From Flavobacterium cheongpyeongense (lineage in GTDB: Bacteria > Bacteroidota > Bacteroidia > Flavobacteriales > Flavobacteriaceae): DNA of 64,000 nt. A model generated the notes under the pieces. The model had not been told where the DNA came from. It did no database searches and was given only the letters and a program-made list of their open reading frames with translations. The DNA is taken from contig NZ_QJHK01000005.1 of assembly GCF_003202435.1 (NCBI RefSeq), positions 238,409 through 302,408 of the forward strand, written 5' to 3'. Shown here piece after piece: positions 49,985 to 64,000 of this stretch; positions within the stretch are counted from its first letter, which is position 1; each line of letters starts with the position of its first letter. Position numbers and translations under genes: made by a program.

Positions 49985-50118
49985 AATATTCGGATTTAAA
50001 CTCAAATATACTGACAAATATTTAAATTTTGAGTATAAAAAAACTCCTGTCAACTGTTGAAAGTTGAAGAAGTTAAATCGTGTTCTTGTTTGATAAAAAA
50101 ACGAAATTACGGAAAGAA

Positions 50119-50388
50119 TTATTTGTCAGATTCCATAATAAAGCTAAACGCTTCAATAACATTGTTCGCATATGGGTTTACGGTATTAACAATCAAGGAA
50201 ACATATTCTGATTCTGGAGAATTAGGATATACTAATTTTCCATCATGTTTCTCAACCATCTCCCAAGAATAATTTTTATACCATTTATCGAAAAGCTTGC
50301 TTCTTGCAGCTTGTTTTCCATCACTTTTATCACAAATATATAGTATTGCATTTTTCCGCAAACTTTCCGATTGAGAAATTACTCGTAT
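50119..50388 (-). pseudogene. C-terminal fragment of a small unknown protein
   Basis: An open frame without ATG encodes SESLRKNAILYICDKSDGKQ, AARSKLFDKWYKNYS, EKHDGKLVYPNSPESEYVS and ends ...ESDK. Initiation is possible only at a TTG (50361) in the middle of what looks like a continuous domain. The pattern (KNAILYICDxxDGKQAxRxxLF, short C-terminal helix) resembles a Bacteroidota family of about 150-residue proteins that I cannot name with confidence. The upstream half is absent, so it is most likely a decayed remnant. Confidence 0.45.
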
Positions 50389-50423
50389 TCAACATTTCTA
50401 TTTCTGATCTTCTGAAATAGTGA

Positions 50424-51608
50424 TTAACTCACCAATAACTGATAAACCTGATTGGCAATTTCAAATTCCTCATCAGTTGGAACAACCAGTACCTTTGTTT
50501 TTGAATCCGGTTTACTGATTTCTCTTATTTCTTTAGAACGAATTTGATTTTTTTCATCCTCTATTTCAATTCCAAAATAATCTAAATCTGTACAAACCAG
50601 CTTACGCATATACGAAGAGTTTTCTCCAATCCCTGCCGTAAAAACAATCGCATCCAGGCCATTTAAAGCAGCTGCGTAAGAACCAATAAACTTTTTAATA
50701 CGGTAGGCATTCATCAGCAAAGCCAATTGACAGTCCTTGTTTCCTTTTTCAGCTTCTGATTCAATATCACGCAAATCACTATAACCTGTCAGGCCAAGCA
50801 TTCCGCTTTGTTTAAGCAAAATAGCATTTACCTCATCAGCCGTGTAACCCAGATTTTTTATCAGATAAAAGATGACCGACTGATCGATATCACCTGCTCT
50901 CGTACCCATTATCAGGCCATTGGCAGGTGAAAATCCCATTGTGGTATCGATGCTCTTTCCATCTTTTACTGCAGCCATACTACAGCCATTTCCTAAATGA
51001 ATGGTAATTATTCTGGAGTTGTTTTCTAAATAATTAATCGCTTGTTCAGAAACATATTTATGACTTGTTCCGTGAAAACCGTAAACACGAACTTTATTTT
51101 CTGTCAAAAGATAATTAGGGATTGCATATTTATAAGCCTCAACCGGAATAGTCTGGTGGAAAGCAGTGTCAAAAACGGCTACCTGACGGGCTTCTGAAAA
51201 TATTTCCTCTGCAACATTTATTCCAACCAAATGTGCCGGATTATGTAAAGGAGCCAGTTCTGATAATTCTTTTATTTTAGCTTTGACCTCATCACTGATA
51301 ATGGTCGTATCAGAAAAATAACTTCCTCCATGAACCACACGATGTCCGACTGCTGTAATTTCTGAAGTTGATTTTATAACTCCTTTTTCAGTGTCCAGAA
51401 GCATTTCAGCAACTTTTTGTAACCCCTCTTTATGTGTTGCAACCGGTACAATCGCTTCAATTGAATTTTCGGTAGTTTTAAATGTTACATTTGAAGTTTC
51501 AAGTCCAATCCTGTCAATCATACCTGAACAAATTACTTCGTTTTCCGGCATAACCATGAGCTGGTATTTTATTGATGAGCTTCCTGAGTTTATTATTAGT
51601 ATTTTCAT
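50424..51608 (-). CDS. ackA: Acetate kinase
   Basis: Converts acetyl phosphate and ADP to acetate and ATP (reversible), cytoplasmic. Landmarks: NSGSSSIKYQLM (phosphate-binding N-terminus), GHRVVHGG, AVFDTAFHQTIP, VYGFHGTSHKYVS, IITIHLGNGCSMAAV, DTTMGFSPANGLIMGTRAGD and DAIVFTAGIGENSSYMR. 394 aa is standard. It lies after pta on the same strand; the 114-bp gap holds a palindromic repeat. Overflow acetate production fits fast use of the glycans handled by the nearby PULs. Confidence 0.97.
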   Translation of the reverse strand: MKILIINSGSSSIKYQLMVMPENEVICSGMIDRIGLETSNVTFKTTENSIEAIVPVATHKEGLQKVAEMLLDTEKGVIKSTSEITAVGHRVVHGGSYFSDTTIISDEVKAKIKELSELAPLHNPAHLVGINVAEEIFSEARQVAVFDTAFHQTIPVEAYKYAIPNYLLTENKVRVYGFHGTSHKYVSEQAINYLENNSRIITIHLGNGCSMAAVKDGKSIDTTMGFSPANGLIMGTRAGDIDQSVIFYLIKNLGYTADEVNAILLKQSGMLGLTGYSDLRDIESEAEKGNKDCQLALLMNAYRIKKFIGSYAAALNGLDAIVFTAGIGENSSYMRKLVCTDLDYFGIEIEDEKNQIRSKEIREISKPDSKTKVLVVPTDEEFEIANQVYQLLVS

Positions 51609-51627
51609 TTTTGCTATTTATGATTTT

Positions 51628-51694
51628 GTCATCCTGAGCAGATCCGAAGGCTTATGAACTATCAAATGGCTTAGGCTCCGCTCAGCCTGACATC
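51628..51694. repeat. Palindromic REP-like element between pta and ackA
   Basis: GTCATCCTGAGC at the left pairs with GCTCAGCCTGAC at the right around AGATCCGAAGGC...GGCTTAGGCTCC, itself partly self-complementary. Arms resemble those of the element at 3486-3580. In the pta-ackA transcript it would form a long stem-loop. Confidence 0.65.
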
Positions 51695-51722
51695 GTATTA
51701 AATTTTTAATTTCTCTAATTGA

Positions 51723-53816
51723 TTAAAGTCCCTGAGCCTGAATGGCTGTAATGACCACAGTATTGATAATATCATCTACAGTACAGCCACGGCTTAAATC
51801 GTTTACGGGTTTGTTTAATCCCTGCAGCATTGGCCCTATTGCCAAAGCACCTGTTTCTCTCTGAACGGCTTTATAGGTATTATTTCCGGTATTTAAATCC
51901 GGAAAAATCAGTACACTCGCCTGCCCTGCTACTTCAGAATCCGGCATTTTACTTTTTCCTACGGCACGATCTACTGCTGCGTCATATTGAATAGGGCCTT
52001 CAATCTTTAAATCCGGGCGTTTTTGTTTTACGATTTCGGTTGCGGTACGAACTTTTTCTACTTCATCACCTTTTCCGGATGAACCGGAAGAATACGAAAG
52101 CATGGCGATTTTCGGTTCAATTCCGAAAGCGGAACTTGAGTCTGCTGATGAAATCGCAATTTCCGCCAATTGTTCAGCCGTTGGATTTGGATTAATAGCG
52201 CAATCTCCAAAAACCGAAACCCTGTCTTCTAGGCACATAAAGAACACAGAAGAAACCACAGATGAATTGGGTTTTGTTTTGATGAACTGCAATGCCGGCA
52301 AAATGGTATGTTGCGTTGTATGGGCAGCTCCGGAAACCATTCCGTCAGCGTGGCCTTTATACACCATCATCGTTCCGAAATAAGAAACATCTTCCATTAA
52401 ATCCTTTGCCATTGTGATGCTAACGTTTTTGGCTTTCCGAAGCTCATAATAGGTATTCGCATAATCCTCATAATCCTCAGATTCAATTGGATTAATAATA
52501 TTTACTTTCGAAAAATCAAACGAAATACCGAGTTCTGTAACTTTATTTTCAATTTGTTTTTTTTCTCCAATGATTGAAATATCGACTACATCCATATCCA
52601 ATAATCTTGAAGCCGCAATAATAATTCTGTCATCACCACCTTCCGGAAGTACAATGTGTTTTCGATGCTGCTTAGCTCTTTTAACCATATTGTACTGAAA
52701 CATTTTTGGTGTCATTCCCTCCGGCACAAAAGTAATCAGGCGTTCTGATAAATCATCTATTTGTACATATTTTTCAAAAGTACTTATTGAAGTTTCAATT
52801 TTATGGGTGTTATTAGCGTAAATCTCAGAATTGATAGCACCAATTTTATTGGTAATATGATAGGTTCCGCCATCTACGGCAATAATAGGAACAATGGCTG
52901 AAAGTCCCTCGATAAGTTTTAAAATACTGTTTTCCGGAAGGATATTTCCGGTAAGGATAATTCCTGAAATCGTTGGGTAATTAGCCGATTCGTTGGCCTG
53001 CAAAGCACCAAGAATTATATCAGAACGATCTCCCGGAGTAATCACCAGCGCATTATCATGCAAATGTACCAGATAATTATGCAGTTGCATTGCACCAACA
53101 CTAAAATGTCCAATTTCATTATTAAGATAATTTTCTCCAAACAAAACTTTAGCATCCAGTTCATTGACAATTTCCTGCATCGTCGGATTGTTTAAAGTAG
53201 AAATCAAGGGAATCGTATTAATCAGAACATTGGATGGCAGCGTTTTCTGAAGACTTTTGGTAACCAGCTCAATATTTTCTGGCTGGACTTTATTGGCAAA
53301 AACAGATAAAACCTCTACTTCTTTTACTTTAAAAGAATCGTAAACCAGGTATAAACTATCCAGTAGTTCTTCTAATGTTTTACCAACTCCCGAACCAATA
53401 ATAATGGTTGGAATTCCGAGGTTTTTGGCAATCAAAACATTCAGGTCTAATTCGATGGAAGTCCCTTCACCGGTAAAACTTGTTCCTTCTACCAAAACAA
53501 AGTCAAAACGTTCTTCGAGTTTTTTATATTTTTCAATAATCAGATCCAAAACCTCCCCTATTTTACCCTTATTTTTCTTCTTGATTAACTTGCTTTTCGT
53601 GATCGCATAAGCATCTTCAAACTTAATATCAAGGTTAAAATACGAAAGGACAGTTTCAATGTGATTGTCCTGTTCTCCATCAACAAAATCCTCAATAATA
53701 GGCCGGAAATAACCAACTTTAGCCGTTTTACCAATTAAAATACTCATCAAACCAAGTGTAATAATTGATTTACCACTATTCTGATCACTTGTGGCAATGT
53801 AGATCGCTTTACTCAT
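51723..53816 (-). CDS. pta: Phosphate acetyltransferase
   Basis: Makes acetyl phosphate from acetyl-CoA and phosphate. 697 aa, the long three-part form: N-terminal P-loop/BioD-like domain (IYIATSDQNSGKSIITLGLM), central DRTGG domain (about 210-320) and C-terminal catalytic PTA domain (about 370-697) with HIVLPEGGDDRIIIAASRLL, DGMVSGAAHTTQHTILPALQ, FGIEPKIAMLSYSSGSSGKG and GPIQYDAAVD. Upstream of and co-oriented with ackA. The long form is known to be allosterically regulated in other bacteria. Confidence 0.97.
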   Translation of the reverse strand: MSKAIYIATSDQNSGKSIITLGLMSILIGKTAKVGYFRPIIEDFVDGEQDNHIETVLSYFNLDIKFEDAYAITKSKLIKKKNKGKIGEVLDLIIEKYKKLEERFDFVLVEGTSFTGEGTSIELDLNVLIAKNLGIPTIIIGSGVGKTLEELLDSLYLVYDSFKVKEVEVLSVFANKVQPENIELVTKSLQKTLPSNVLINTIPLISTLNNPTMQEIVNELDAKVLFGENYLNNEIGHFSVGAMQLHNYLVHLHDNALVITPGDRSDIILGALQANESANYPTISGIILTGNILPENSILKLIEGLSAIVPIIAVDGGTYHITNKIGAINSEIYANNTHKIETSISTFEKYVQIDDLSERLITFVPEGMTPKMFQYNMVKRAKQHRKHIVLPEGGDDRIIIAASRLLDMDVVDISIIGEKKQIENKVTELGISFDFSKVNIINPIESEDYEDYANTYYELRKAKNVSITMAKDLMEDVSYFGTMMVYKGHADGMVSGAAHTTQHTILPALQFIKTKPNSSVVSSVFFMCLEDRVSVFGDCAINPNPTAEQLAEIAISSADSSSAFGIEPKIAMLSYSSGSSGKGDEVEKVRTATEIVKQKRPDLKIEGPIQYDAAVDRAVGKSKMPDSEVAGQASVLIFPDLNTGNNTYKAVQRETGALAIGPMLQGLNKPVNDLSRGCTVDDIINTVVITAIQAQGL

Positions 53817-53872
53817 AATTTATATTTTGAAAGTAATAAATGTATTCGATTTGTAATTTTTAATTCTGCCCC

Positions 53873-54943
53873 TTAAAACCAGCGTCTTTTCCTGAAATAG
53901 ATAATTAAGGCTATAACCAATAGAAACATGACTATCATAACAATAAAGTAGCCGTTTCTGGTATGCAATTCGGGCATATTATCAAAGTTCATTCCGTATA
54001 CTCCAACAATAAAAGTAAGCGGAATAAAAACTGCCGAAATAATGGTGAGTGTTTTCATAATCTCGTTCATCTTCCGACTTTGTTCAGAGAAATAAAAGTT
54101 TGAGGCACTTTCCAGTGAACTCATATCCGACTCGATCTGCTCTAAAAGTTCCAGACTTTTTTGGTGCAATCTGATGAAAAAATTAAACGTTTCCTTTTGA
54201 ATCAGATAATTTGTATCATCTTCTTTTATAGTTTTCAAATAATACAACGAATCCCGAAGCGGAATAATCGAACGCTTTAAAAAATTAAAATTATCACGGT
54301 GGTTTTCAATCTTTTCCAGAATAATTGGGTCAGCTCCTTTTTTGGTTAAATCAATTAATTCCTCAATATTCTCTTCTTCGTCTTCAATTGTAATATAAAA
54401 GTTTTCCATTACGGCATCCAATAATAAGTAGAGCAAATAATCGACTTTTTTAGTTCTTACAATTCCTGCATGTGTCCGAATGCGTTCTCGTATATGCGTA
54501 AAGAAATCACTTCGTTTTTCCTGAAAAGAAATCAGAATTCCGTCTTTTAAAATAAAACTAAGCTGTTCAACTTTAAGACCGTCAGAGTATTCTGAAGGCA
54601 AAAGGGATTTAATATTAAAGAATAAAACATCCTGCTGTTCTTCTAGTTTGGTTCTTTTAGTGGTGTTTAAAATATCTGCCAGTAAAAAATCGTCCAGCTT
54701 AAAATGCACCCCAATAGTTTTAATTAAATTGATATCATTTAATCCGTGAATGTTCAGCCAGTTATTTTTGGTATAATCAAAACAGGAATTTAGGGCTAAG
54801 ACCGTAAACTTTTCATATTCAACAATATCGGCATCATTGTAAACAAAAAGCTGCATTTCTGTTTCGTGATCTTTATGGGAGCCTGTATACTCCAGAGTGG
54901 TATGCTGTAGCTTGCGGCCTTCTTTGTATTTTATCTTACGCAT
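53873..54943 (-). CDS. corA: CorA family magnesium/cobalt transporter
   Basis: Inner-membrane divalent cation channel. Long cytoplasmic domain (about 1-290) with mixed alpha/beta N-terminus and long helices, then two C-terminal membrane helices: LTIISAVFIPLTFIVGVYGM followed by the selectivity loop GMNFDNMPEL, and FIVMIVMFLLVIALIIYF, ending in a basic tail (RKRRWF). The ATG at 54943 is preferred over an adjacent upstream TTG. 356 aa is typical. It lies 56 bp upstream of pta on the same strand; functional linkage is not evident. Confidence 0.95.
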   Translation of the reverse strand: MRKIKYKEGRKLQHTTLEYTGSHKDHETEMQLFVYNDADIVEYEKFTVLALNSCFDYTKNNWLNIHGLNDINLIKTIGVHFKLDDFLLADILNTTKRTKLEEQQDVLFFNIKSLLPSEYSDGLKVEQLSFILKDGILISFQEKRSDFFTHIRERIRTHAGIVRTKKVDYLLYLLLDAVMENFYITIEDEEENIEELIDLTKKGADPIILEKIENHRDNFNFLKRSIIPLRDSLYYLKTIKEDDTNYLIQKETFNFFIRLHQKSLELLEQIESDMSSLESASNFYFSEQSRKMNEIMKTLTIISAVFIPLTFIVGVYGMNFDNMPELHTRNGYFIVMIVMFLLVIALIIYFRKRRWF

Positions 54944-55101
54944 CAAAAAAAAATTATTATAGTAATATTACAAAAAAGAATCGGATTGGGAAATGACAAA
55001 TATCATTTTAAAATGAAGATTCTGAATGAGAAATTATAAAAAACCATTACTTTTATAATGACTACTACAGCTAAATTTTGTCATAAAATGAACATTAAAA
55101 A

Positions 55102-55779
55102 ATGAATCACAAAATAAGAATCTCAATTCCAGAGCCTTGTCACGAAAATTGGTTTGAAATGCCCCAAAAAGAAAGAGGCCGTTTTTGTAACAGTTGCCAA
55201 AAAGATGTAATTGATTTTACAGAGTCTACCAATAGGGAAATTGTAATGGCTTTTAATGAAAATGAAAATTTATGCGGAAGATTTAAAACATCACAACTGA
55301 AAAGGGAAATAATTATTCCAAAAGAAAAAAAATCATTTTGGATAATTACTGCTGCATCATTAATTGCATTTTTAGGGGTAGGAACTCAAACTTCAAAAGC
55401 ACAAGGAAAGATACGAATTGAAAAAATAAGTGAAGCAAATCTTTCTGTAGATAATGACGATGAAGAAATAGAAGTTAACGGACAAATTATCATTGATGAT
55501 ATAAATCCAAATTTTGAAGATGTTGAAATTCTCGTTTCTAACAAAAATAAAACATTTCATCCTTCTGCTGACGGTAAATTTTGTTTTATGGCAAACAAAA
55601 AAGATTCACTTATATTTAGTAAAACTGATTTTGGGAATTATAATACTATAGTATATAAATTATCTAAATTTGCTTCTGTAGAATTATATAAAGAAAAAAC
55701 AACTGTATCTTATACTGTTGGTGGTGCTTATGTAGTAAAAAAAAGAAGCCTTTGGCATCGTCTTTTTCATAAAAATTAA
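55102..55779 (+). CDS. Membrane-anchored protein with N-terminal Cys-rich motif, unknown
   Basis: 225 residues. N-terminal cytoplasmic part has ISIPEPCHENWFEM, GRFCNSCQKDVIDFT and NLCGRF, four Cys that could form a zinc ribbon. One membrane helix follows (WIITAASLIAFLGVGTQTS), then a periplasmic region with a carboxypeptidase-regulatory-like beta domain (VNGQIIIDDINPNFEDVEIL, FHPSADGKFCF). The organisation resembles a Bacteroidota-specific protein group of unknown role with a metal-binding cytoplasmic head and a periplasmic beta domain. It stands alone and shares a terminator with dnaK. Confidence 0.7.
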   Translation: MNHKIRISIPEPCHENWFEMPQKERGRFCNSCQKDVIDFTESTNREIVMAFNENENLCGRFKTSQLKREIIIPKEKKSFWIITAASLIAFLGVGTQTSKAQGKIRIEKISEANLSVDNDDEEIEVNGQIIIDDINPNFEDVEILVSNKNKTFHPSADGKFCFMANKKDSLIFSKTDFGNYNTIVYKLSKFASVELYKEKTTVSYTVGGAYVVKKRSLWHRLFHKN

Positions 55780-55788
55780 ATCCTAAAA

Positions 55789-55814
55789 AAACCGAGTCAT
55801 TTCTGACCCGGTTT
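55789..55814. terminator. Bidirectional terminator between the Cys-rich protein gene and dnaK
   Basis: AAACCGAGTCA pairs with TGACCCGGTTT (one mismatch) around TTTC, with an A-run on the left. It lies between convergent genes. Confidence 0.75.
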
Positions 55815-55854
55815 CTATCTTAATACTTACTACTAATTACTTAGTGCAAAAGAA

Positions 55855-57735
55855 TTATTTTACTTCTTCGAATTCAACATCTTCAACATTGTCTCCGGAC
55901 TGCTCTTGTTGTGGAGCAGCTTGTTGCCCTTCACCACCTTGAGCGTACATTGCTTCTGTAGCTGTTTTCCAGGCTGCATTTACATTGTCTAATCCTTTTT
56001 GGATAGCGTCAAGATCCTGAGACTGGTGAGCCATTCTCAATTCAGTTAAAGCATATTCGATAGCTGTTTTTTGATCGTCTGTCAATTTATCACCTAACTC
56101 TTTCAATTGAGATTCAGTTTGGAAAATAGTACTATCAGCTTCGTTTAATTTCTCAGCTCTTTCTTTTGCAATTCTGTCAGCGTCAGCATTAGCTTCAGCA
56201 TCTTTTTTCATTTTTTCGATTTCTTCAGCTGTTAAACCAGAAGAAGCTTCGATACGGATATCGTGAGATTTTCCAGTTCCTTTGTCAGTTGCAGAAACTT
56301 TGATGATACCGTTAGCATCAATATCAAAAGTAACCTCGATTTGAGGAACTCCTCTTGGTGCTGGCGGAATACCGTCTAAGTGGAAACGACCAATCGTTTT
56401 GTTATCAGCAGCCATTGCTCTTTCACCTTGTAATACGTGAATTTCAACAGACGGTTGAGAATCAGCAGCAGTAGAGAATACCTGAGATTTTTTAGTTGGA
56501 ATAGTTGTATTAGACTCGATTAATTTAGTCAATACACCACCCATAGTTTCGATACCCAAAGAAAGAGGTGTTACGTCAAGTAACAATACATCTTTTACAT
56601 CTCCGGATAAAACTCCACCCTGAATAGCAGCTCCAATAGCCACAACCTCATCAGGATTAACACCTTTAGATGCTTTTTTACCAAAGAATTTCTCCACTTC
56701 GTCAGCGATTCTTGGCATACGGGTAGAACCTCCAACAAGAATAACTTCGTCAATATCAGATGTAGATAAACCTGCATCTTTTAATGCTTTAGCAACTGGC
56801 TCCATAGAACGTTTTACTAAAGAATCAGATAATTGCTCAAATTTAGCTCTTGACAATTTTTTCACTAAGTGTTTTGGTCCAGAAGCAGTAGCTGTAACGT
56901 ATGGTAAGTTTACTTCAGTTTCTGCAGAAGAAGACAATTCAATTTTTGCTTTCTCAGCAGCTTCTTTCAAACGTTGTAAAGACATTGGGTCTAAACGTAA
57001 GTCAATACCTTCTTCAGATTTGAATTCGTCAGCCAGCCAGTCAATAATAACCTGGTCAAAATCATCACCACCTAAGTGTGTATCACCATTTGTAGATAAT
57101 ACTTCAAATACACCGTCTCCTAATTCCAGAACAGAGATATCAAAAGTACCTCCACCTAAATCGTAAACAGCAATTTTTTGATCCGTTCCTTTTTTATCCA
57201 ATCCGTAAGCCAATGCAGCAGCAGTTGGCTCGTTGATGATACGCATAACTTTCAAACCAGCAATTTCACCAGCCTCTTTAGTAGCCTGACGCTGAGCATC
57301 GTTAAAGTAAGCAGGAACAGTAATAACCGCTTCAGTTACAGTTTGACCTAAATAGTCTTCAGCAGTTTTTTTCATTTTTTGAAGTGTCATAGCAGACAAC
57401 TCCTGAGCAGTGTATAAACGACCGTCAATATCCACACGTGGTGTATTGTTGTCCCCTTTTACAACACTGTAAGGAACTCTTTTTGCCTCTTCCTGAGTTT
57501 CAGCAAAAGTATGTCCCATAAAACGTTTAATAGAAGCAATCGTTTTTGTAGGATTCGTTACTGCTTGTCTTTTTGCAGGATCACCCACTTTAATTTCTCC
57601 ACCTTCAACAAAAGCGATGATAGATGGTGTAGTTCTTTTTCCCTCTGCGTTAGGAATAACAACTGCTTCGTTACCTTCCATTACAGAAACACAAGAGTTC
57701 GTCGTACCTAAGTCAATTCCGATTATTTTACCCAT
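55855..57735 (-). CDS. dnaK: Chaperone DnaK (Hsp70)
   Basis: ATP-driven chaperone. ATPase domain with [70 protein letters not shown] and [12 protein letters not shown]; substrate-binding domain with [21 protein letters not shown]-terminal lid and EEVK-like end (DVEFEEVK). 626 aa. dnaJ and grpE are not adjacent. A sigma-54-like promoter candidate lies 49 bp upstream. The region just beyond the promoter is where the heptad array and cassette platform begin. Confidence 0.99.
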
Positions 57736-57783
57736 TTTTTATATATTTAATTTTGATTTAATTTCAAACTCATGTGGCATAAG

Positions 57784-57799
57784 TCAATCTTTGTGCCAA
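57784..57799 (-). promoter_or_regulatory. Sigma-54-type promoter candidate for dnaK
   Basis: The minus strand reads TTGGCACAAAGATTGA. GG and the -12 dinucleotide are 10 bp apart as in TGGCAC-N5-TTGC, with GA in place of GC. It ends 49 bp before the dnaK ATG. No full sigma-A promoter was found in the same stretch (closest TTACTTTG). Confidence 0.45.
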
Positions 57800-57914
57800 T
57801 ATAAAAAATCAAAGTAATTTGTCAGTTATACTGTCTGAGCATTAAAAAGCACCTGACAACATGACATTTTCAAAACCTGACATACTGAGTAAATTAACGC
57901 TTTATGTGTCATTA

Positions 57915-58065
57915 TCAGGAGCTTTTTCCTGCTGTCCGTTATTATCTCTGGCTCGGTTGGCTTTTTTGTCTGGGCCGCAAAGGAGCTTCCGTTGGTCGCT
58001 CTTTCCGTCCTGCCAAAAAATAGCCACCCGGGCCAGAGGATGTCACTACCATCAGGGCTAATAAG
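57915..58065 (+). ncRNA. Structured element with a long imperfect hairpin (candidate RNA or recurring repeat)
   Basis: Arms TCTCTGGCTCGG (57945-57956) and CCGGGCCAGAGGA (58028-58040) pair over 12 bp with two GU. Inside, TGGCTTTTTTG pairs with CAAAAAATAGCCA with a 2-nt bulge. Outer conserved-looking ends are CAGGAGCTTTTTCCTGCTGT and CTACCATCAGGGCTAA. It is much GC-richer than its surroundings. I have the impression that flavobacterial genomes contain similar elements with these ends and variable hairpins, but this is memory only. Function and strand are unknown. Confidence 0.45.
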
Positions 58066-58105
58066 GTTAGAAGTTAGGACTCTAATCCGTTATCCATAGC
58101 ACAGA

Positions 58106-58399
58106 CTAATCACTAATTACTAAGGACTAATTACTAAGGACTAATCACTAAAAACTAATCACTAATCACTAATCACTAATTACTAATTACTAATCACTAA
58201 GTACTAATCACTAAAAACTAATCACTAAAAACTAATCACTAATCACTAATCACTAATCACTAATCACTAAGGACTAAGGACTAATCACTAAGGACTAATC
58301 ACTAAAGACTAAGTACTAATCACTAAAAACTAATCACTAATCACTAATTACTAATCACTAATCACTAATCACTAATTACTAAGGACTAATCACTAAGTA
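58106..58399. repeat. 42 tandem heptads CTAANNA
   Basis: 294 bp made of exactly 42 seven-base units in unbroken register. Only positions 5-6 vary: TC in 22 units, TT in 6, GG in 6, AA in 4, GT in 3, AG in 1. The other five positions (CTAA...A) are invariant in all 42. Every reading frame has stops, so it is non-coding. It ends where the recombinase gene's 5' half should be. Confidence 0.95.
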
Positions 58400-58421
58400 C
58401 TATAATCCTGTAAAATTAATT

Positions 58422-58919
58422 TTGAACGCTCCTTCTAATTTGAAACATAAAACGATGTTGTCTTTGATTTACAGTTGTGGCTTAAGACGAAGCGAGCTTT
58501 TGAATTTAAAACCTGCCGATATTGATTCCAAACGAGGTATTATACTAATTCGTCAAGGCAAAGGAAAAAAAGACCGAATCGTACCCTTATCTACGAAAAT
58601 ACTCGAAATGTTACGAAATTATTATAGCACTTTCAAGCCCACTACTTGGCTTTTTGAAGGACAAATTGCCGGAGCAAATTACTCTGAGAAAAGTTTGCAG
58701 AGTATTTTGAAGCAAGCATTGCAAAAAGCGGGGATTAGCAAACCAGCCACCTTGCACTGGTTGCGCCACAGTTATGCCACGCACTTATTAGAAAGCGGCA
58801 CCGATTTGCGGTACATACAGGAGTTATTGGGTCACAACAGTAGTAAAACTACCGAAATTTACACTCATGTTAGTACGAAAAGTTTACAACAAATTAAGAG
58901 TCCTTTTGATGATTTATAA
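58422..58919 (+). pseudogene. Tyrosine recombinase, catalytic half only (Xer/phage-integrase type), of a cassette platform
   Basis: 165 codons from a TTG covering the complete catalytic domain: Arg22 (SCGLRRSELL), Lys in GKGKKDR, His112 and Arg115 (LHWLRHSYATHLLE), His138 (ELLGHNSSKTT) and nucleophile Tyr147 (EIYTHVS). Family members have about 300-370 residues with an N-terminal SAM-like DNA-binding domain, absent here: the reading frame closes at a TAA within the heptads. The span between the Arg box and HxxR is short and lacks the extra helix of IntI integrases, so it is Xer-like. No ATG is near the start. It points toward the cassettes, whereas intI genes point away. Either a decayed integrase or an unusual short form. 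Confidence 0.75.
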
Positions 58920-58937
58920 TAAATATTTTTATATTTG
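58906..58937 (+). promoter_or_regulatory. Cassette-array promoter (Pc-like), TTG-N21-TATATTTG
   Basis: TTG at 58906-58908 lies in the last codons of the recombinase; after 21 bp comes TATATTTG (58930-58937), a full match to TAnnTTTG. It fires into the cassettes, all of whose genes are on the plus strand. Being embedded in the recombinase end, it recalls the Pc promoter of mobile integrons. Confidence 0.7.
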
Positions 58938-58948
58938 AAGAATATAAA

Positions 58949-59027
58949 GTCTGACTCAAGTCAGACCTATCTCTCTACTTTTGGTGTGATAGGTCTGATT
59001 TTATCAGACCTATATGCTAGTTGGCTG
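58949..59027 (+). other. attI-like primary insertion site
   Basis: Between the array promoter and the first cassette. It holds GTCTGAC-TCAA-GTCAGAC (58949-58966, perfect 7-bp stem) and an 11-bp perfect stem, ATAGGTCTGAT with ATCAGACCTAT (58989-59013), loop TTT. The decamer TCAGACCTAT occurs twice directly (58961, 59004) and once inverted. The inferred cut is in GCTAG|TTGGCTG at 59020/59021. The left flank differs from the GAACG of attC sites, as expected of attI. Confidence 0.7.
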
Positions 59028-59064
59028 TAATTATAAAAAACCGTACATAAATAAAAAATTAAAA

Positions 59065-60168
59065 ATGGAAAATTTAGAATTTGATGATAAAATTTCAGAA
59101 GAAACTGAAATTACTGAAATACCTCAAGAAATTCGAAAAATTAATACTCAAGCATACGATAAAAGTGTTTCTGACATAGTTCGTATGATTGACGATGGCG
59201 ATATAAATTTAAACCCTGAATATCAAAGAAATTATATTTGGGACAATAAAAAATCATCACTACTTATTGAATCTATAATACTGAATGTACCAATTCCTGT
59301 AATATATGTTTCACAAGAAGCAGATGATTCTTGGACAGTAATTGATGGATTGCAAAGGTTAAATTCTTTGCATCGTTTTTTCCAAAGAGATTATAAATTA
59401 TCAGGTTTGGAAATACTTACAGAACTTAACAAGAGCGATATTAAGTCTCTTAATCCTAAAGCCGTTCGTGTATTAAGAAATGGACTTTTAAGAATTATAG
59501 TAATTTCTCACGATTCACATCCTGAAATAAAATACGATGTATTTATGAGATTAAATACTGGTGCTGTAAAATTAAATGACCAAGAATTAAGAAATTGTCT
59601 TTATAGAGGTTCAATGAATGACAAGCTAAAAGAAATAGTTTCAAAACCAAATATTCTAAAATTATTTAATTTAGAAATGCCACATAATAGAATGTCTGAT
59701 TGCGAATTGATTTTAAGATTTTTAGCTTTATTAGACAACTATGATGAAAATGAAAACCAAATTAAAAATTATAAAGGAAGAATGAAAACCTTTATAAATG
59801 AATATTTATTAAAAACCAAAAATCTTGATCCATCTCTATTAATGCAATTAGATGAAATGATTGAAGATACAGCTAAAACAATTATTGAAATATATTCAGT
59901 AAACGCTTTTAATAGATTTAATTCTGATGGACAATATGAATCTACTTTAAATAGGTCTCTAATGGATATATTATTCCTAAGTACGACTGTTTTACCAAGT
60001 GAAAAATTAATTGAATATAAGGACCAAATTTTTGCTCGATACAAAGAATTAGTAATTAATGATTCTGAATTTAGAAACAGTATAACTATTGGTACATCTG
60101 ATACAAAAGTTTTAAATTACAGACTTAATAGATGGATTTCAGAGATAAAAAATATAATCAATGGATAA
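59065..60168 (+). CDS. DUF262 (GmrSD/ParB-like N-terminal) domain protein, cassette 1
   Basis: 367 residues, cytoplasmic. The DUF262 core is visible: SVSDIVRMIDDGDINLNPEY, WDNKKSSLLIESIILNVPIP and the nucleotide/catalytic loop VIDGLQRLNSLHRF (Asp94-Gly-Leu-Gln-Arg98, close to the DGQQR consensus), followed by YDVFMRLNTGAVKLNDQELR. The family includes the GmrS half of modification-dependent restriction enzymes. The ATG at 59065 is used; a frame starting at 59014 would cross the attI cut point. It overlaps the next gene by 8 bases. Likely an anti-phage or toxin-type module; no effector domain follows in the same polypeptide. Confidence 0.82.
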   Translation: MENLEFDDKISEETEITEIPQEIRKINTQAYDKSVSDIVRMIDDGDINLNPEYQRNYIWDNKKSSLLIESIILNVPIPVIYVSQEADDSWTVIDGLQRLNSLHRFFQRDYKLSGLEILTELNKSDIKSLNPKAVRVLRNGLLRIIVISHDSHPEIKYDVFMRLNTGAVKLNDQELRNCLYRGSMNDKLKEIVSKPNILKLFNLEMPHNRMSDCELILRFLALLDNYDENENQIKNYKGRMKTFINEYLLKTKNLDPSLLMQLDEMIEDTAKTIIEIYSVNAFNRFNSDGQYESTLNRSLMDILFLSTTVLPSEKLIEYKDQIFARYKELVINDSEFRNSITIGTSDTKVLNYRLNRWISEIKNIING

Positions 60169-60841
60169 TTTTGAATCGGTTAATGATTTTAATGAAGCAA
60201 TCAAGGAAATTCATATTCTTATTGAAAATGCAAATTTGTCAATAAGTGATAATCTTAAATATAGAACATTTAACAAATCATCAATTGTCTTATTATGTGG
60301 GAAATTTGAATCATTTATTGAAGGTTTTTTAGAGGAGTTTGGATTCTATATTTTAAATAATTTTTCAAATAAACAATTAGAGACTTACATTAAAGAACAC
60401 CTAATCGATATATTAATTAAGGATTTGGACAATAAAAAGAATAACCCAATTAAAAGGGGAGAAATATTGATGAAATTTGTAAAAATATTAGGTAACGATG
60501 AAGTATTATGCAACGAGTTTGAAATTAATTCAAAATTTAGTTATGGTAAACACGGACAAAGTGAAGTAACCAAACTATTGAAAAAATTTGGTTTTAATGA
60601 GTTTGCAGACTCGGAAGAAAACAAAATTTTTTATGAAAAATTTAATTCTTTAAATAACATAAGAAATAACATCCTTCATCAGGATTCAACACCTTCACTA
60701 ACACATCAAGACGTTGAAAACTATTTGGCAATTTTAGAGATGTTTATTGAAAATATACATAAAGAAGCTATTAAAATCATTAGTGAGATGAAAAATAACT
60801 ACAGCCAACAGCCGTTTGGCGAGATTGGGGTTTTAGGCTAA
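60161..60841 (+). CDS. HEPN-fold protein (MAE_28990/MAE_18760-like), cassette 1
   Basis: 226 residues, all-alpha. The HEPN RNase motif Arg-x4-His is present as Arg168-NNIL-His173 in NNIRNNILHQDS. Earlier parts KSSIVLLCGKFESFIEGFLE and FADSEENKIFYEKF fit the HEPN partner proteins commonly encoded beside DUF262 genes. The 8-bp overlap with that gene points to one functional pair, probably a defence or toxin-antitoxin module. The last 11 codons run into the attC site (QPFGEIGVLG) because its R''-like box, CAGCCAAC, lacks the TAA that other cassettes have there. Confidence 0.78.
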   Translation: MDNFESVNDFNEAIKEIHILIENANLSISDNLKYRTFNKSSIVLLCGKFESFIEGFLEEFGFYILNNFSNKQLETYIKEHLIDILIKDLDNKKNNPIKRGEILMKFVKILGNDEVLCNEFEINSKFSYGKHGQSEVTKLLKKFGFNEFADSEENKIFYEKFNSLNNIRNNILHQDSTPSLTHQDVENYLAILEMFIENIHKEAIKIISEMKNNYSQQPFGEIGVLG

Positions 60842-60938
60842 ATTTAAAGATGGTTTTGTATTTGGAAAATTTGTCTTTAACCGAAAGATCTCGCATCTTT
60901 AATCCCCAACCTCGCCAAGCGCCAGAACGTTATGGTGT
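60800..60938 (+). other. attC-like site 1 (end of cassette 1)
   Basis: R''-like TACAGCCAAC at 60800-60809; cut at 60929/60930 in GAACG|TTATGG. Inner arms TTGGCGAGATTGGGG and CCCCAACCTCGCCAA pair strongly; the middle is AT-rich. Confidence 0.8.
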
Positions 60939-61375
60939 ATAGCTCCGCCGACGAGAATCAGCTGATTTTAATCGGGTGTTGTAGTTCGGAAAACAAAATG
61001 AAGCAAAAACCAAGCTGACCGAAACCGAAACTGAAATTGATACCGAATTGTTGCGGACTAACAAAGGTGAACCGCTTATCGGACAAACGAAAGCAGATTT
61101 TTTTTGTCGCATTTTTTTGAGATTTAACTAAAGTTTGGAATTCAAAGACGGGAACTATTTGGAACGGAAAATCGGAAGGCGGAAAAACTTGCCGAAATTG
61201 AAATCGATAATTGGAATGGAAAATAGTGCGTGCTTAACAGACGTGTCGCTACACACCATAACACACGCCTCTAGCTATTTGCAAATTTAGTGGAATTATC
61301 GTTTTTAATTCCTATTTTCGTTTAACCGAAAATACTCAGTTTCATAAGTTGCAAACAGCTAGAGGCGCGAGAACG
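60930..61375 (+). mobile_element. Cassette 2, no convincing gene
   Basis: 446 bp. Plus-strand frames are short: one of 28 codons from an ATG at 60932 and a start-less one with KTKLTETETEIDTELLRTNK. A 60-codon minus-strand frame runs back across the cassette boundary into the R' box, so is unlikely to be real. Repeated GAAACCGAAACTGAAAT-type sequence suggests slippage or decay. It may be a decayed or promoter/RNA cassette. Confidence 0.6.
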
Positions 61376-61384
61376 TTAGCAGTA
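61253..61384 (+). other. attC-like site 2 (end of cassette 2)
   Basis: R''-like ACACCATAAC at 61253-61262; cut at 61375/61376 in GAACG|TTAGCA. Inner arms GCCTCTAGCTATTTGCAA and TTGCAAACAGCTAGAGGC pair with a one-base difference in length. Confidence 0.82.
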
Positions 61385-61409
61385 ATGCGCCCAAAAAAAA
61401 AGAATATTT

Positions 61410-61919
61410 ATGAGAAAAATAAACTATCTACAAATCATTTTTCACTTTATAGCAACGTGTTTTTTTATATATTCATTTTACTCCTATTCCGCAATTTATA
61501 ATATTAAAATTTTGACTGCAATCTCAGAAAACGGAAGTGAGAATGTATTACGAAATTCTGAAAAATTTGGAATAACTATAATGGATATTTGGAACTTTTC
61601 TTTCGTAACTCAACTTTCTGCTGTTTTAGGAATATTAACTTCATTTATTATTTCTATGGTAATTTCTATAAAAAATAAATGGTCTGTTTGGAATAGTTTC
61701 ATTGTTCTTGTACTATGTTACACACTAAATCGATTTGATCTTTTAGGTTGGAGCTATTTAAAAACCTATATATCTCCAGGAAGATTAGTAAATAATCTGC
61801 TTTTTAGTTTTTTAATTACGGGGAGTTTCCTGCTTCTAATTGGATTGATAATTTTCTTTTCTAATTTTTTAAAAAACCGAATTGAAAATCAGAAACTGAA
61901 ACAAATGCACTACTGCTAA
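61410..61919 (+). CDS. Four-helix membrane protein, cassette 3
   Basis: 169 residues with four membrane segments (IIFHFIATCFFIYSFYSY, LSAVLGILTSFIISMVISI, WNSFIVLVLCYTLNRF, LLFSFLITGSFLLLIGLIIF). No known domain is recognised. Its stop codon TAA is supplied by the R''-like box of the attC site (TGC-TAA-C), so the gene fills its cassette from about 35 bp after the cut point to the boundary. Membrane proteins of unknown role are common cassette cargo. Confidence 0.75.
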   Translation: MRKINYLQIIFHFIATCFFIYSFYSYSAIYNIKILTAISENGSENVLRNSEKFGITIMDIWNFSFVTQLSAVLGILTSFIISMVISIKNKWSVWNSFIVLVLCYTLNRFDLLGWSYLKTYISPGRLVNNLLFSFLITGSFLLLIGLIIFFSNFLKNRIENQKLKQMHYC

Positions 61920-62047
61920 CACACGCTACAAGCAATTTGGGTATTAGGCTTAATGGAAAGTTGATTTTGTATTTGAAAGATTTCGCAAATCCGAATAATG
62001 GGCTTAATTTAGTCCCAAACTGCGTGTAGCGCGGGAACGTTAGCCGT
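61911..62047 (+). other. attC-like site 3 (end of cassette 3)
   Basis: R''-like TACTGCTAAC at 61911-61920; cut at 62039/62040 in GAACG|TTAGCC. Inner arms ACACGCTACAAGCAATTTGG and CCCAAACTGCGTGTAGCG pair imperfectly. Confidence 0.82.
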
Positions 62048-62089
62048 CATTGTAAGAACGACCGTAATCAATAGAAAGACAAAGAATTA

Positions 62090-63106
62090 ATGACAGAAAA
62101 ATTTCCGACAATAAATAGCACACTTTCACCAAATGAACTTGGAAAACTTATTCAACAAAAATTTGGACTGAGCGACAAAACCGAATGTAGCATATTTCGA
62201 CTTGCAATGAACCATTTATACATTGTTCAAGACGGTGAAAATAAATTCGTTTTTAGAGTTTACACACATAATTGGCGGACAAAATTAGAAATTGAAGAAG
62301 AATTAAGACTTTTAACTCACTTAAAGGAAAACGACCGACAGGTTGCATTTCCAATTGCAGACAAATCGAACAAATTAATTCAAGAAATTGAAGCACCAGA
62401 AGGAAAAAGATTTGGGGTTTTATTTTCGTATGCCAAAGGTACAAAGACAGCAAAATTTTCATACCAAACAAGCTTTCATATCGGACAAGCATTGGCAAAA
62501 GTTCATCAATCGACAGAAAAATTTGAGTTAAAAAGAATGTCTTACAATGCTGAAAATTTGCTTAAAAATTCAGTTTTAAAAACAAAGGAGTTCTACAGTA
62601 AAAACATTGACGAAATTAATTTTTTAGAAAAACTGTCTGTTTACTTAACAGACAAAATGGAAAATATTGACAAACGTAAAATGAGGTACGGAAGTGTTCA
62701 TCTTGATGTTTGGTTTGACAATCTTCACATTGATGATGAAACAGGAATAACTTTTTTTGACTTCGATTTTTGTGGAAATGGTTATTTATGTTTCGACATT
62801 TCTTATTTTCTGTTTCAGTTGCTTGCAACAAATTTAAACGAAGAAGAATATCAAATAAAAGCAGACAGCTTCATAAAAGGTTACGAAACAGTAACAGAAA
62901 TAAGTAACGAAGAAAAAGAGTTCATAAATTATGGCTGTTTAGCAATTATGACGTACTACATTAGTGTTCAGTGCGACAGATTTAACTATTGGACAAATAT
63001 TTTCCTAAATGAAGACCATTTAAAAAGAATGGTTGGAAATTTGAAAAGGTGGATTAAATATAACAAAATTGAAATAAACACGACTGAAAAAACAACGAAC
63101 GGCTAA
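62090..63106 (+). CDS. APH-fold phosphotransferase, cassette 4
   Basis: 338-residue kinase of the aminoglycoside phosphotransferase/homoserine-kinase-II type. N-lobe FRLAMNHLYIVQDGENKFVF; catalytic loop GSVHLDVWFDNLHI (His204, Asp206, Asn211, i.e. HxDxxxxN); metal-binding FFDFDFCG (Asp224). The substrate may be an antibiotic or a small hydroxylated metabolite; it is not close to any resistance gene I can name. Stop TAA lies inside the R''-like box, giving a protein ending -TNG. A resistance-related gene in a cassette would be typical of integrons, but activity is unproven. Confidence 0.82.
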   Translation: MTEKFPTINSTLSPNELGKLIQQKFGLSDKTECSIFRLAMNHLYIVQDGENKFVFRVYTHNWRTKLEIEEELRLLTHLKENDRQVAFPIADKSNKLIQEIEAPEGKRFGVLFSYAKGTKTAKFSYQTSFHIGQALAKVHQSTEKFELKRMSYNAENLLKNSVLKTKEFYSKNIDEINFLEKLSVYLTDKMENIDKRKMRYGSVHLDVWFDNLHIDDETGITFFDFDFCGNGYLCFDISYFLFQLLATNLNEEEYQIKADSFIKGYETVTEISNEEKEFINYGCLAIMTYYISVQCDRFNYWTNIFLNEDHLKRMVGNLKRWIKYNKIEINTTEKTTNG

Positions 63107-63234
63107 CAGCAGTTTGGCAAAATGGCGGGTTCGGTGCTAAATTGAATATTTGGTTTTCAAATGGACATTAGTGCTAAATTGAAAATAAGTGCTTCTAAAT
63201 CCGCCACTTCGCCAAGCTGCGAACCGTTAGCCGT
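63099..63234 (+). other. attC-like site 4 (end of cassette 4)
   Basis: R''-like ACGGCTAAC at 63099-63107; cut at 63226/63227 in GAACCG|TTAGCC. Inner arms CAGTTTGGCAAAATGGCGG and CCGCCACTTCGCCAAGCTG pair. The middle carries the repeated GTGCTAAATTGAA. Confidence 0.82.
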
Positions 63235-63280
63235 CAGTTTAAACGAACATCATAAAAAGAAAACTTTCAAAAAAATACTT

Positions 63281-63757
63281 ATGGACAATTCAAAAATTGA
63301 TACTTTATTACTTGAAGTAAGTAACGAGAAAAATTATCAAATGAAAATGGAAGATGAGTTCGATAATTATAAAGATTACATAGATTATAAAAACAATTTA
63401 ATTTTAATGCTTGACGATATTAAAGTACTTAAAAAACCACATTCAAACAGTCTGGAAATAGTCTTAACTAGTTTTGGACTTGAAGTTATTGAAAAAGGTG
63501 GATGGCTAAAATATCAGGAAGATCGAAAGGAAAAAGAAAAATTAAATGCTGAAAAGGAGAACTATGATTTTCTTTCTAAGCGGTGGATTTATAAAAATCG
63601 ACTTCTGCCCTATTTTTTGTCTGTAGCGGCTTTAACAGTTTCAATACTAACTCTTTACTTTAATGCGCAAAAACAAGAAAAAATTGAAACATTGAAAAAA
63701 GAAATAGAAAAAATAAAAACCGAAATACATACTAAAAAAACAAAACCGAACGGCTAA
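63281..63757 (+). CDS. Coiled-coil protein with one membrane helix, cassette 5
   Basis: 158 residues: an N-terminal soluble alpha-helical region (KIDTLLLEVSNEKNYQMKME), one membrane helix (LLPYFLSVAALTVSILTLYF) near the C-terminus and a short Lys/Glu coiled coil (KQEKIETLKKEIEKIKTEIH). The ATG at 63281 is used because a frame starting at 63161 would begin inside the attC site. The stop TAA is in the R''-like box, ending -PNG. No domain is recognised. Confidence 0.75.
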   Translation: MDNSKIDTLLLEVSNEKNYQMKMEDEFDNYKDYIDYKNNLILMLDDIKVLKKPHSNSLEIVLTSFGLEVIEKGGWLKYQEDRKEKEKLNAEKENYDFLSKRWIYKNRLLPYFLSVAALTVSILTLYFNAQKQEKIETLKKEIEKIKTEIHTKKTKPNG

Positions 63758-63885
63758 CAGGCGTTTGGCAAGATTGCGAATTTTGTAGTAAATTCACGTT
63801 TATTTTTCGAAAGAAATTTTATCTTTGATAGAAAATAATCAGTTCCGAAGTTCGCAACCTCGCCAAGCGCCGGAACGTTATAGGC
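63750..63885 (+). other. attC-like site 5 (end of cassette 5)
   Basis: R''-like ACGGCTAAC at 63750-63758; cut at 63877/63878 in GAACG|TTATAG. Inner arms GGCGTTTGGCAAGATTGCGAA and TTCGCAACCTCGCCAAGCGCC pair almost fully. Confidence 0.82.
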
Positions 63886-63911
63886 AACCAAACCAGAAAC
63901 CGTAATCAGAC

Positions 63912-64000
63912 ATGAAAACTTTAACGACAGTATTTATCTCAATTATTTTGTTTACATACATTGCTTGTGATAGACCGAATTGCAAAAACACAAATCCAAT
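63912..64000 (+). CDS. Lipoprotein, cassette 6, N-terminus only
   Basis: The frame starts MKTLTTVFISIILFTYIACD, a signal peptide with lipobox (YIAC), then RPNCKNTNP up to the window end. It begins 35 bp after the cut point of attC site 5, as the other cassette genes do. No family can be named from 29 residues. Confidence 0.6.
   Translation, partial: MKTLTTVFISIILFTYIACDRPNCKNTNP

What the first reader, a model, noticed from the sequence alone, without database searches (positions are those of the whole stretch)
58906..64000. An integron-like cassette array in a Bacteroidota genome
Five evenly sized dyad sites (about 132-139 bp) separate co-oriented single-gene or two-gene units. The first 9-10 bases of every complete cassette are the exact reverse complement of the box at its own 3' end (GTTGGCTGTA/TACAGCCAAC; GTTATGGTGT/ACACCATAAC; GTTAGCAGTA/TACTGCTAAC; GTTAGCCGT/ACGGCTAAC twice), not of the neighbour's. 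Only recombination of circular units at G|TT explains this. All sites share GAAC(C)G|TTA at the cut. I know of no well-described platform of this type, with a non-IntI recombinase, in this phylum.
Basis: partly seen in the sequence, partly recalled or inferred. Interest (0 to 1): 0.96.

Follow-up and report, generated by a model that had tools for sequence, protein, structure and literature searches.

The report
Second integron lineage in Bacteroidota
The end of this window holds five complete gene cassettes bounded by hairpin sites, part of a gene-capture array of a kind whose sites occur in 206 of 295 sampled genomes of its class, and which is likely worked by a recombinase that lacks the piece held to be essential in known integrons.

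Summary
Five cassettes start and end exactly at G|TT, and each one's first 9-10 bases are the reverse complement of its own 3' box. The genome holds at least 56 such sites. Copies of one cassette sit between different neighbours with breaks exactly at G|TT. Sites picked by their ends alone (136) pair along the stem far above shuffled arms. A structure model of the site finds it in 206 of 295 genomes of the class. Sites nearly always run away from a tyrosine recombinase gene of one clade, and 141 of 151 genomes with that recombinase have sites. The recombinase lies near IntI and XerA but lacks the IntI-specific insert (34 of 34 sequences; 29 of 29 IntI have it), usually lies upstream of and co-oriented with its array, and carries an extra N-terminal domain. 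Between gene and array lies an attI-like stretch ending TATA...A|GTT. Most sites lack the extra stem base of canonical attC sites. In this genome the array's own recombinase is a 5'-truncated remnant. Best reading: an integron-like capture system, widespread in Bacteroidota, that detectors requiring the IntI-specific domain would not report as complete. I found no description in the papers I could search. Activity, strand choice and circles are inferred, not shown.

The parts
58407..58919 (+). remnant of the array's tyrosine recombinase: catalytic half only, about 170 codons; the N-terminal domain and core-binding domain are missing
   Evidence: profile match to positions 178-346 of 346; PF00589 145 bits; relatives have a full 347-aa gene in the same place
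58930..58937 (+). TATATTTG, a TAnnTTTG box just after the recombinase stop; predicted promoter of the array
   Evidence: position; TAnnTTTG within 60 nt after the stop in 25 of 58 loci against 449 of 11600 control windows; that this is the Bacteroidota promoter box is recalled
58949..58966 (.). outer dyad of the attI-like region
   Evidence: similar dyads by eye in most of 12 aligned rows
58991..59022 (+). attI-like site: 8-bp inverted repeat with 5-nt loop, then TATATGCTA|GTT
   Evidence: dyad kept by covariation in 12 loci (80.2 % of cells paired, 55.7 % in shuffles, 24 double changes against 7.5); TATA....A|GTT in 12 of 12; the 12 were picked by eye from 30 loci
59020..60928 (+). cassette 1: two genes, GmrSD_N/DUF262 protein and HEPN protein, a likely anti-phage pair
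   Evidence: Pfam GmrSD_N 87 bits and HEPN_RiboL-PSP 60 bits; PADLOC NsnA 277 bits; ends match over 10 bases
60807..60931 (+). attC-like site 1 (AAC to GTT)
   Evidence: R1 113.4 bits, but this site is one of the 43 from which R1 was built
60929..61374 (+). cassette 2: 446 bp, no co-oriented ORF of 50 aa or more; 13 copies of over 380 bp in the three contigs searched
61260..61377 (+). attC-like site 2
61375..62038 (+). cassette 3: 169-aa protein, hydrophobic by eye, no Pfam match over cut-off
61918..62041 (+). attC-like site 3
   Evidence: R1 99.9 bits
62039..63225 (+). cassette 4: 338-aa protein of the APH-like phosphotransferase family
   Evidence: PF01636 57 bits
63105..63228 (+). attC-like site 4
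   Evidence: R1 111 bits
63226..63876 (+). cassette 5: 158-aa protein, unknown
63756..63879 (+). attC-like site 5
   Evidence: R1 104.2 bits
63877..64000 (+). start of cassette 6, cut by the end of the contig

Best explanation
The window ends in a cassette array of an integron-like gene-capture system in which a tyrosine recombinase without the IntI-specific domain is predicted to cut folded hairpin sites at G|TT, release and insert circular gene cassettes, and add new ones at a conserved site beside its own gene. Shown by sequence: exact cassette boundaries at G|TT, own-end complementarity, a stem kept through changes on both sides, near-constant geometry relative to one recombinase clade, and an attI-like region. 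Inferred: that the clade's recombinase is the enzyme, that it acts on a folded single strand (probably the bottom strand), that cassettes pass through circles, and that TAnnTTTG after the recombinase gene drives the first cassettes. In this genome the adjacent recombinase is a remnant, so this array is likely static now or served from elsewhere.
For: Own-end complementarity in 63 of 71 cassettes, neighbour 9; 19 of 23 against 0 of 23 in distant genera. Copies of one cassette begin and end exactly at G|TT: 13 heads, and 12 tails, 9 of them followed by nine different cassettes. Stem: 136 sites defined by own-end 9-mers alone have on average 8.86 of 13 stem columns paired, 4.69 with the arms dealt out anew; in 43 sites 19 of 20 stem pairs change on both sides. 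Sites in 206 of 295 genomes of the class. Recombinase and sites together in 141 genomes, recombinase alone 10, sites alone 65, neither 79 (odds ratio 17). Sites run away from the recombinase gene in 46 of 46 hits, 51 of 51 entered by hand and 68 of 69. attI-like region. R204, K229, H294, R297 and Y329, the catalytic residues by established knowledge, are invariant in 30 aligned recombinases. Foldseek's best PDB match of the recombinase model is the integron recombinase 2a3v, E 1.2e-16. Longest gene co-oriented in 32 of 45 cassettes, opposite 5, none 8.
Against: No activity, circles or strain-level rearrangement were observed. The recombinase of this very array is truncated. 65 of 295 genomes have sites without a detected recombinase, and 10 the reverse. 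The odds ratio ignores shared ancestry. The closest curated model is XerA_Arch (222 bits, cut-off 220), not integron integrase (210, cut-off 265). The insert missing here is reported as essential for IntI function (PMC8138268, passages). Bottom-strand preference is weak (60 of 86). Eight of 71 cassettes fail the own-end test, some of them perhaps because a site between was missed.
Confidence: 0.87

Rival explanations
1. A canonical IntI integron, or a cluster of attC sites left behind by one (CALIN), whose IntI acted from elsewhere.
For: Same logic of cassettes and own-end boxes. Canonical IntI is over cut-off in 84 of 296 genomes of the phylum, and in 8 of 18 canonical loci chains of two or more such cassettes lie beside intI.
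Against: No IntI over cut-off in any sampled genome of the own genus, family or order, and one in the rest of the class. The covariance model gives 4 hits at E <= 0.1, at most 36.8 bits, in 18 canonical IntI loci. 32 of 35 canonical sites carry an extra base on the 5' arm of the stem; of 136 sites here defined by their ends alone 114 have none, 11 one on the 3' arm, 4 on the 5' arm, 1 on both, 6 no clear stem. Recombinases of the clade lack the IntI insert, 34 of 34.
Confidence: 0.05
2. Sites are recombined by the housekeeping XerC/XerD, with the array-linked gene a passenger.
For: XerC/D-like genes are present in the genome, and sites exist in genomes without the clade recombinase.
Against: 141 of 151 recombinase-bearing genomes have sites, and the geometry ties sites to that gene. 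Genomes in the sample without sites are taken to have Xer as well (established knowledge, not counted here).
Confidence: 0.04
3. The hairpins are a repeat family (REP- or MITE-like) that spreads between genes without cassette recombination.
For: Many similar hairpins per genome, some apparently single.
Against: An inserted hairpin would not make each gene's start complementary to its own 3' hairpin box, nor put breaks of whole gene units at G|TT.
Confidence: 0.03

Closest known systems
Sedentary chromosomal integron (IntI, attI, attC cassettes; Vibrio-type superintegron)
   Same: Long arrays of mostly single-gene, co-oriented cassettes; boundaries at G|TT; 5' end of each cassette complementary to its own 3' box; hairpin sites kept by structure; attI-like site next to a tyrosine recombinase gene; best fold match 2a3v.
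   Different: Recombinase lacks the IntI-specific insert and has an extra N-terminal domain; the array is usually downstream of and co-oriented with the recombinase; most sites lack the extra stem base, and 43 of 43 aligned have an A in the stem facing C in 41; the attI-like site has a covarying dyad at the cut.
CALIN (attC cluster lacking an integrase)
   Same: This genome's arrays lack an intact recombinase, and many sampled genomes have sites only.
   Different: The sites are of the other type; relatives carry the intact clade recombinase beside the array.
XerA-type recombinases (archaeal) and NCBIfam NF040815
   Same: Best-scoring curated family, 222 bits against cut-off 220 for L069.
   Different: XerA acts on dif (recalled); here the gene is tied to cassette arrays and has an added N-terminal domain.
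SMARCAL1 HARP domain
   Same: First and second Foldseek match of the N-terminal domain model among 350,542 chains; the HARP likeness had been guessed from sequence before.

Membership tests
Integron in the strict sense (IntI integron) | Tyrosine recombinase with the IntI-specific additional domain near patch III (used by IntegronFinder, PMC9668308 passages) | tested here: not met
   absent in 34 of 34 recombinases of the clade, present in 29 of 29 IntI aligned; TIGR02249 200-210 bits in four full-length members, cut-off 265
Integron in the strict sense (IntI integron) | Cassettes end in hairpin sites whose outer boxes are complementary in the cassette's own circular form, joined at G|TT | tested here: met
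Integron in the strict sense (IntI integron) | attC stem with extrahelical bases | tested here: not met
   114 of 136 end-defined sites have no extra base in the first 14 stem columns; 32 of 35 canonical sites have one on the 5' arm
Integron in the strict sense (IntI integron) | attI site next to the integrase gene, at the start of the array | tested here: met
   attI-like region, TATA....A|GTT in 12 of 12 aligned loci; insertion there is not shown
Integron in the strict sense (IntI integron) | Integrase gene divergent from the cassettes | tested here: not met
   co-oriented in this window and 15 of 20 genomes; divergent in a subclade, 5 of 20
Integron in the strict sense (IntI integron) | Cassette promoter at the head of the array | tested here: inconclusive
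   TAnnTTTG enriched after the stop, 25 of 58; no transcription data
Integron in the strict sense (IntI integron) | Recombination of the folded bottom strand of attC | not testable with these tools
   bottom strand more stable in 60 of 86; needs an assay
XerA/XerC/XerD | Curated family score | tested here: inconclusive
   NF040815 XerA_Arch 222, 218, 224 and 211.5 bits against cut-off 220; XerC/XerD far below cut-off
HARP/DRD domain | Fold and sequence profile | tested here: inconclusive

The most novel reading that the evidence does not exclude
Bacteroidota carry a second, ancient integron lineage, split from IntI, that solved recognition of folded single-stranded sites in another way: a HARP-like fork-binding N-terminal domain in place of the IntI insert, a one-sided loop and an invariant A-C mismatch in place of extrahelical bases, and an attI that is itself a hairpin. 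It is a phylum-wide gene-sharing and defence-gene reservoir of a kind that IntI-based integron detectors cannot report as complete.
Probability: 0.35. Interest if true: 0.96.

Novelty: new variant of a known kind. Interest (0 to 1): 0.91.

Why it matters
Integrons are thought rare in this phylum: the survey whose passages I read names one complete integron in Bacteroidetes proper, in Salinibacter ruber (PMC9024848). If these arrays work as inferred, most of the sampled class has had a cassette-capture system that detectors requiring the IntI-specific domain would miss. It would make directly testable which parts of IntI are needed to recombine folded single strands, since the insert called essential is absent here. 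It also opens a large unread pool of cassette genes: 14 of 20 proteins of contig C30 that I scanned have no Pfam match at E 0.001, and one cassette in the window carries a likely anti-phage pair.

Tried and rejected
The Rfam scan of 50000-64000 gave nothing for the sites; its only hit over a gathering score is Flavo-1. HARP by sequence: Pfam and PDB profile searches gave nothing for it. Homologues of cassette 1 (G083) and cassette 4 (G003, G687, G758, G658) were checked for flanking sites as a sign of exchange: none at E <= 0.05, one stray 0.083, so they do not show exchange between genomes. A first canonical-attC finder was too strict and found no chains; a chain search replaced it, but its chains look nearly alike on both strands, so orientation of canonical arrays rests on the extra stem base. 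I first took the unequal inner spacers for a unique feature; canonical sites there also have unequal spacers (most often 2x6 and 7x9), so I dropped that as a distinction. The finder itself demanded AAC, GTT, complementary ungapped arms and a spacer difference of 4, so the pairing, spacer and no-extra-base counts on its 86 sites lean that way. I therefore repeated them on 136 sites defined by own-end 9-mers alone, where the difference of 4 comes out freely in 98 of 136. IntegronFinder's own attC model was not available.

Papers: ten searches listed no description of this system. The library lacks preprints and most subscription journals. I read passages of PMC9024848, PMC2426708, PMC8618304, PMC9668308 and PMC8138268, and no paper whole.
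Full report
What is in the window. The last 5 kb hold five complete cassettes and the start of a sixth (59020-60928, 60929-61374, 61375-62038, 62039-63225, 63226-63876, then from 63877). Every cassette begins with GTT and ends just before the next GTT. Its first 9-10 bases are the reverse complement of the box at its own 3' end (own match 10, 10, 10, 9, 9; neighbour 3, 4, 6, 9, 4). The sites measure 118-125 bp from AAC to GTT.

The array is much larger than the window. The window is the end of a 302-kb contig. The same kind of site recurs through the genome: a 33-kb contig (C30) and a 6.5-kb contig (C36) carry such sites from end to end, and smaller clusters lie elsewhere. The covariance model built later finds 56 sites in this genome, a lower bound because the tool scored at most 58 candidates.

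Boundaries. Cassette 2 of the window has 13 copies of over 380 bp in the three contigs searched (C30, C36 and the window's end). At all 13 heads identity begins exactly at G|TT after differing sites. At the 12 tails that could be read it ends exactly before GTT: nine are followed by nine different cassettes and three by another copy; the last copy is cut by its contig end. Over 71 cassettes of this genome and relatives, the 7 bases after GTT match the own 3' box at 6 or more positions in 63, the neighbour's box in 9. In 23 cassettes under 2.5 kb from distant genera, of 27 consecutive pairs in all, the counts are 19 and 0. Several failures span long stretches where a site may have been missed.

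Site structure. The finder chose sites by AAC, GTT and complementary ungapped arms, so counts on its 86 sites are not independent of pairing. In 43 of them chosen as unlike each other, 19 of 20 inner stem pairs change on both sides: 91.4 % of cells pair against 62.9 % in shuffles, and 253 cells are changed on both sides against 79.5; sliding the partner gives at most 52. The independent test uses 136 sites defined only by own-end 9-mers and a next cassette start, with no condition on the arms: 8.86 of 13 stem columns pair on average, against 4.69 (s.d. 0.18) when arms are dealt out anew; 95 of 136 have 9 or more; and the best stem lies at a spacer difference of 4 in 98 of 136. An unpaired A is invariant in 43 of 43, facing C in 41. 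Canonical sites beside IntI genes in the same phylum carry an extra base on the 5' arm in 32 of 35. Here 114 of 136 end-defined sites have no extra base, 11 have one on the 3' arm, 4 on the 5' arm, 1 on both, and 6 show no clear stem. The bottom strand folds better than the top in 60 of 86, which is weak support for bottom-strand use.

The recombinase. Next to the array lies a 165-aa reading frame with the tyrosine-recombinase catalytic domain. Relatives carry a gene of 347 aa in the same place, so the window's copy has lost its first half; a run of 7-base repeats stands there instead. No other intact copy shows in this draft genome: the remaining matches are XerC/D-like genes and broken or distant ones. 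The full-length protein L069 scores 222 bits with the XerA_Arch model (cut-off 220), 210 with integron integrase (cut-off 265, in two pieces), and 196 and 184 with XerD and XerC. The integron match breaks in two because the insert of about 40 residues that marks IntI is absent: it is present in 29 of 29 IntI sequences and absent in 21 of 21 of the clade, window included, and in 13 of 13 more. Not all of these 34 have a site in the stretch I fetched. In a careful tree the clade is one group (96/91), IntI another (100/99), and both lie apart from four Xer rows. In a quick tree with more rows the clade's support is 83 by SH-aLRT alone. The root is not known, so sister to IntI is a lead, not a result. 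AlphaFold gives pLDDT 83, and the best solved structure is the integron recombinase 2a3v, E 1.2e-16, followed by XerA at 7.2e-16. An extra N-terminal domain of about 60 residues (pLDDT 77) has the SMARCAL1 HARP domain as first Foldseek match, but at E 0.32, without sequence support, and other folds rank first with VIA-align.

Link between recombinase and sites. Of 60 named loci found by the recombinase profile (60 of 80 searched), 41 bear Bacteroidota titles by my count. Nineteen of these 41 have sites at E <= 0.01, and 0 of the other 19 do. All 46 hits run away from the recombinase gene: 44 downstream on the same strand, and 2 upstream on the other. In 295 genomes of the class sites occur in 206 and the recombinase at E <= 1e-60 in 151: both 141, sites only 65, recombinase only 10, neither 79, odds ratio 17, p 1e-20, uncorrected for ancestry. 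Geometry in 20 genomes, entered by hand: 40 sites same strand downstream (15 genomes), 11 opposite strand upstream (5 genomes). The five divergent cases fall in one part of the tree. In 13 fetched loci 68 of 69 sites run away from the gene; the exception is a weak hit of 26.3 bits in L227. In a phylum sample sites occur in 140 of 296 genomes, 85 of them outside the class; some of these are single weak hits. Controls: 0 of 8 genomes from loci with other titles (small), and 4 weak hits in 18 canonical IntI loci. Canonical IntI over cut-off is in 84 of 296 genomes of the phylum, but in none of the own genus, family or order and one of the rest of the class.

The attI-like region. The stretch from the recombinase stop to the first cassette is 100-103 bp in 10 of the 16 loci, of 30 tried, where both ends could be fixed; the others are 78-222 bp. 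It has a TAnnTTTG box just after the stop (25 of 58 loci against 449 of 11600 control windows), and an 8-bp dyad kept by covariation (80.2 % of cells against 55.7 %, 24 double changes against 7.5). The end, TATA....A|GTT, is found in 12 of 12 loci aligned. These 12 were picked by eye for their likeness; several other loci end differently, for example L130 and L141. In the window the parts are 58930-58937, 58991-59011 and the cut at 59020.

Cassette content. Of 45 cassettes in C30, C36 and the window the longest frame of 50 aa or more is co-oriented with the site in 32, opposite in 5 and absent in 8; 11 of the last 13 are copies of the 446-bp cassette. Cassette 1 encodes a GmrSD_N/DUF262 protein and a HEPN protein; the first matches the defence model NsnA at 277 bits. 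Six of 20 scanned C30 proteins have a Pfam match at E 0.001. In 199 genomes of the genus, with two candidates scored per genome, the window's genes turn up singly: cassette 1 in G083 at 79 %, cassette 4 in four genomes at about 70 %, part of cassette 3 in G699 at 68 %, and relatives of cassette 2 in G669, G030, G726, G742 and G684 at 71-77 %. The cassette 2 relatives in these five genomes lie among such sites (L243-L247), so the same unit is a cassette there too; the homologues of cassettes 1 and 4 have no flanking sites and are no proof of exchange.

How it likely works. Shown: units with exact ends at G|TT whose ends fit their own partner, a structural site, a recombinase clade tied to the sites, and an attI-like region. 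Inferred: the recombinase pairs two folded sites, or a folded site with the attI-like region, exchanges strands at G|TT, and so excises circles or inserts them at the head of the array, where the TAnnTTTG box expresses them. In this genome the recombinase is a remnant, so the array is probably a stranded reservoir.

What it is called. It works like an integron. It is not filed as an IntI integron, because the IntI-specific domain, the extrahelical stem bases and (mostly) the divergent gene order were tested and not met. I rate it a new variant of a known kind. The passages read say that integrons are very rare in Bacteroidetes (PMC9024848), though the phylum is listed among those with integrons (PMC8618304), and that the insert is essential for integron function though not fully conserved in the integron-like subgroup (PMC8138268). 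Ten searches of the paper library found no account of this system. The genus Flavobacterium is inferred from named homologues and not told by a tool for this genome.

Noticed in passing
58090-58400: A run of 7-base repeats (ACTAATC and variants) stands where the 5' half of the recombinase gene should be; it may mark how the gene was lost.
   Followed up: partly
57921-58063 (-): Flavo-1 RNA (Rfam RF01705, 49.9 bits) between a DnaK-like gene (by eye) and the array; function unknown.
   Followed up: no
60929-61374 and copies in L011, L012, L013: A 446-bp cassette without a co-oriented gene is repeated 13 times in the contigs searched; possibly a regulatory RNA, a promoter cassette or a selfish unit.
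   Followed up: partly
L086 and L087 (609- and 610-aa recombinases): Recombinases of the clade with what looks by eye like three copies of the N-terminal domain before the catalytic part.
   Followed up: no
L224-L228 (G420, G552, G386, G447, G551): A subclade of the recombinase lies divergent from its array, as IntI does, so gene order switched within the clade.
   Followed up: partly
L010 (contig C84 219-231 kb, before the window) and L014-L018: Further clusters and single sites by DNA similarity in the same genome, with no recombinase of the clade found near them.
   Followed up: no
59065-60838: DUF262/GmrSD_N plus HEPN gene pair in cassette 1, PADLOC NsnA 277 bits; its homologue in G083 has no flanking sites.
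   Followed up: partly
G065, G070, G074 (phylum sample): Genomes with canonical IntI over cut-off and with sites of the new type; both systems seem to live in one cell.
   Followed up: no
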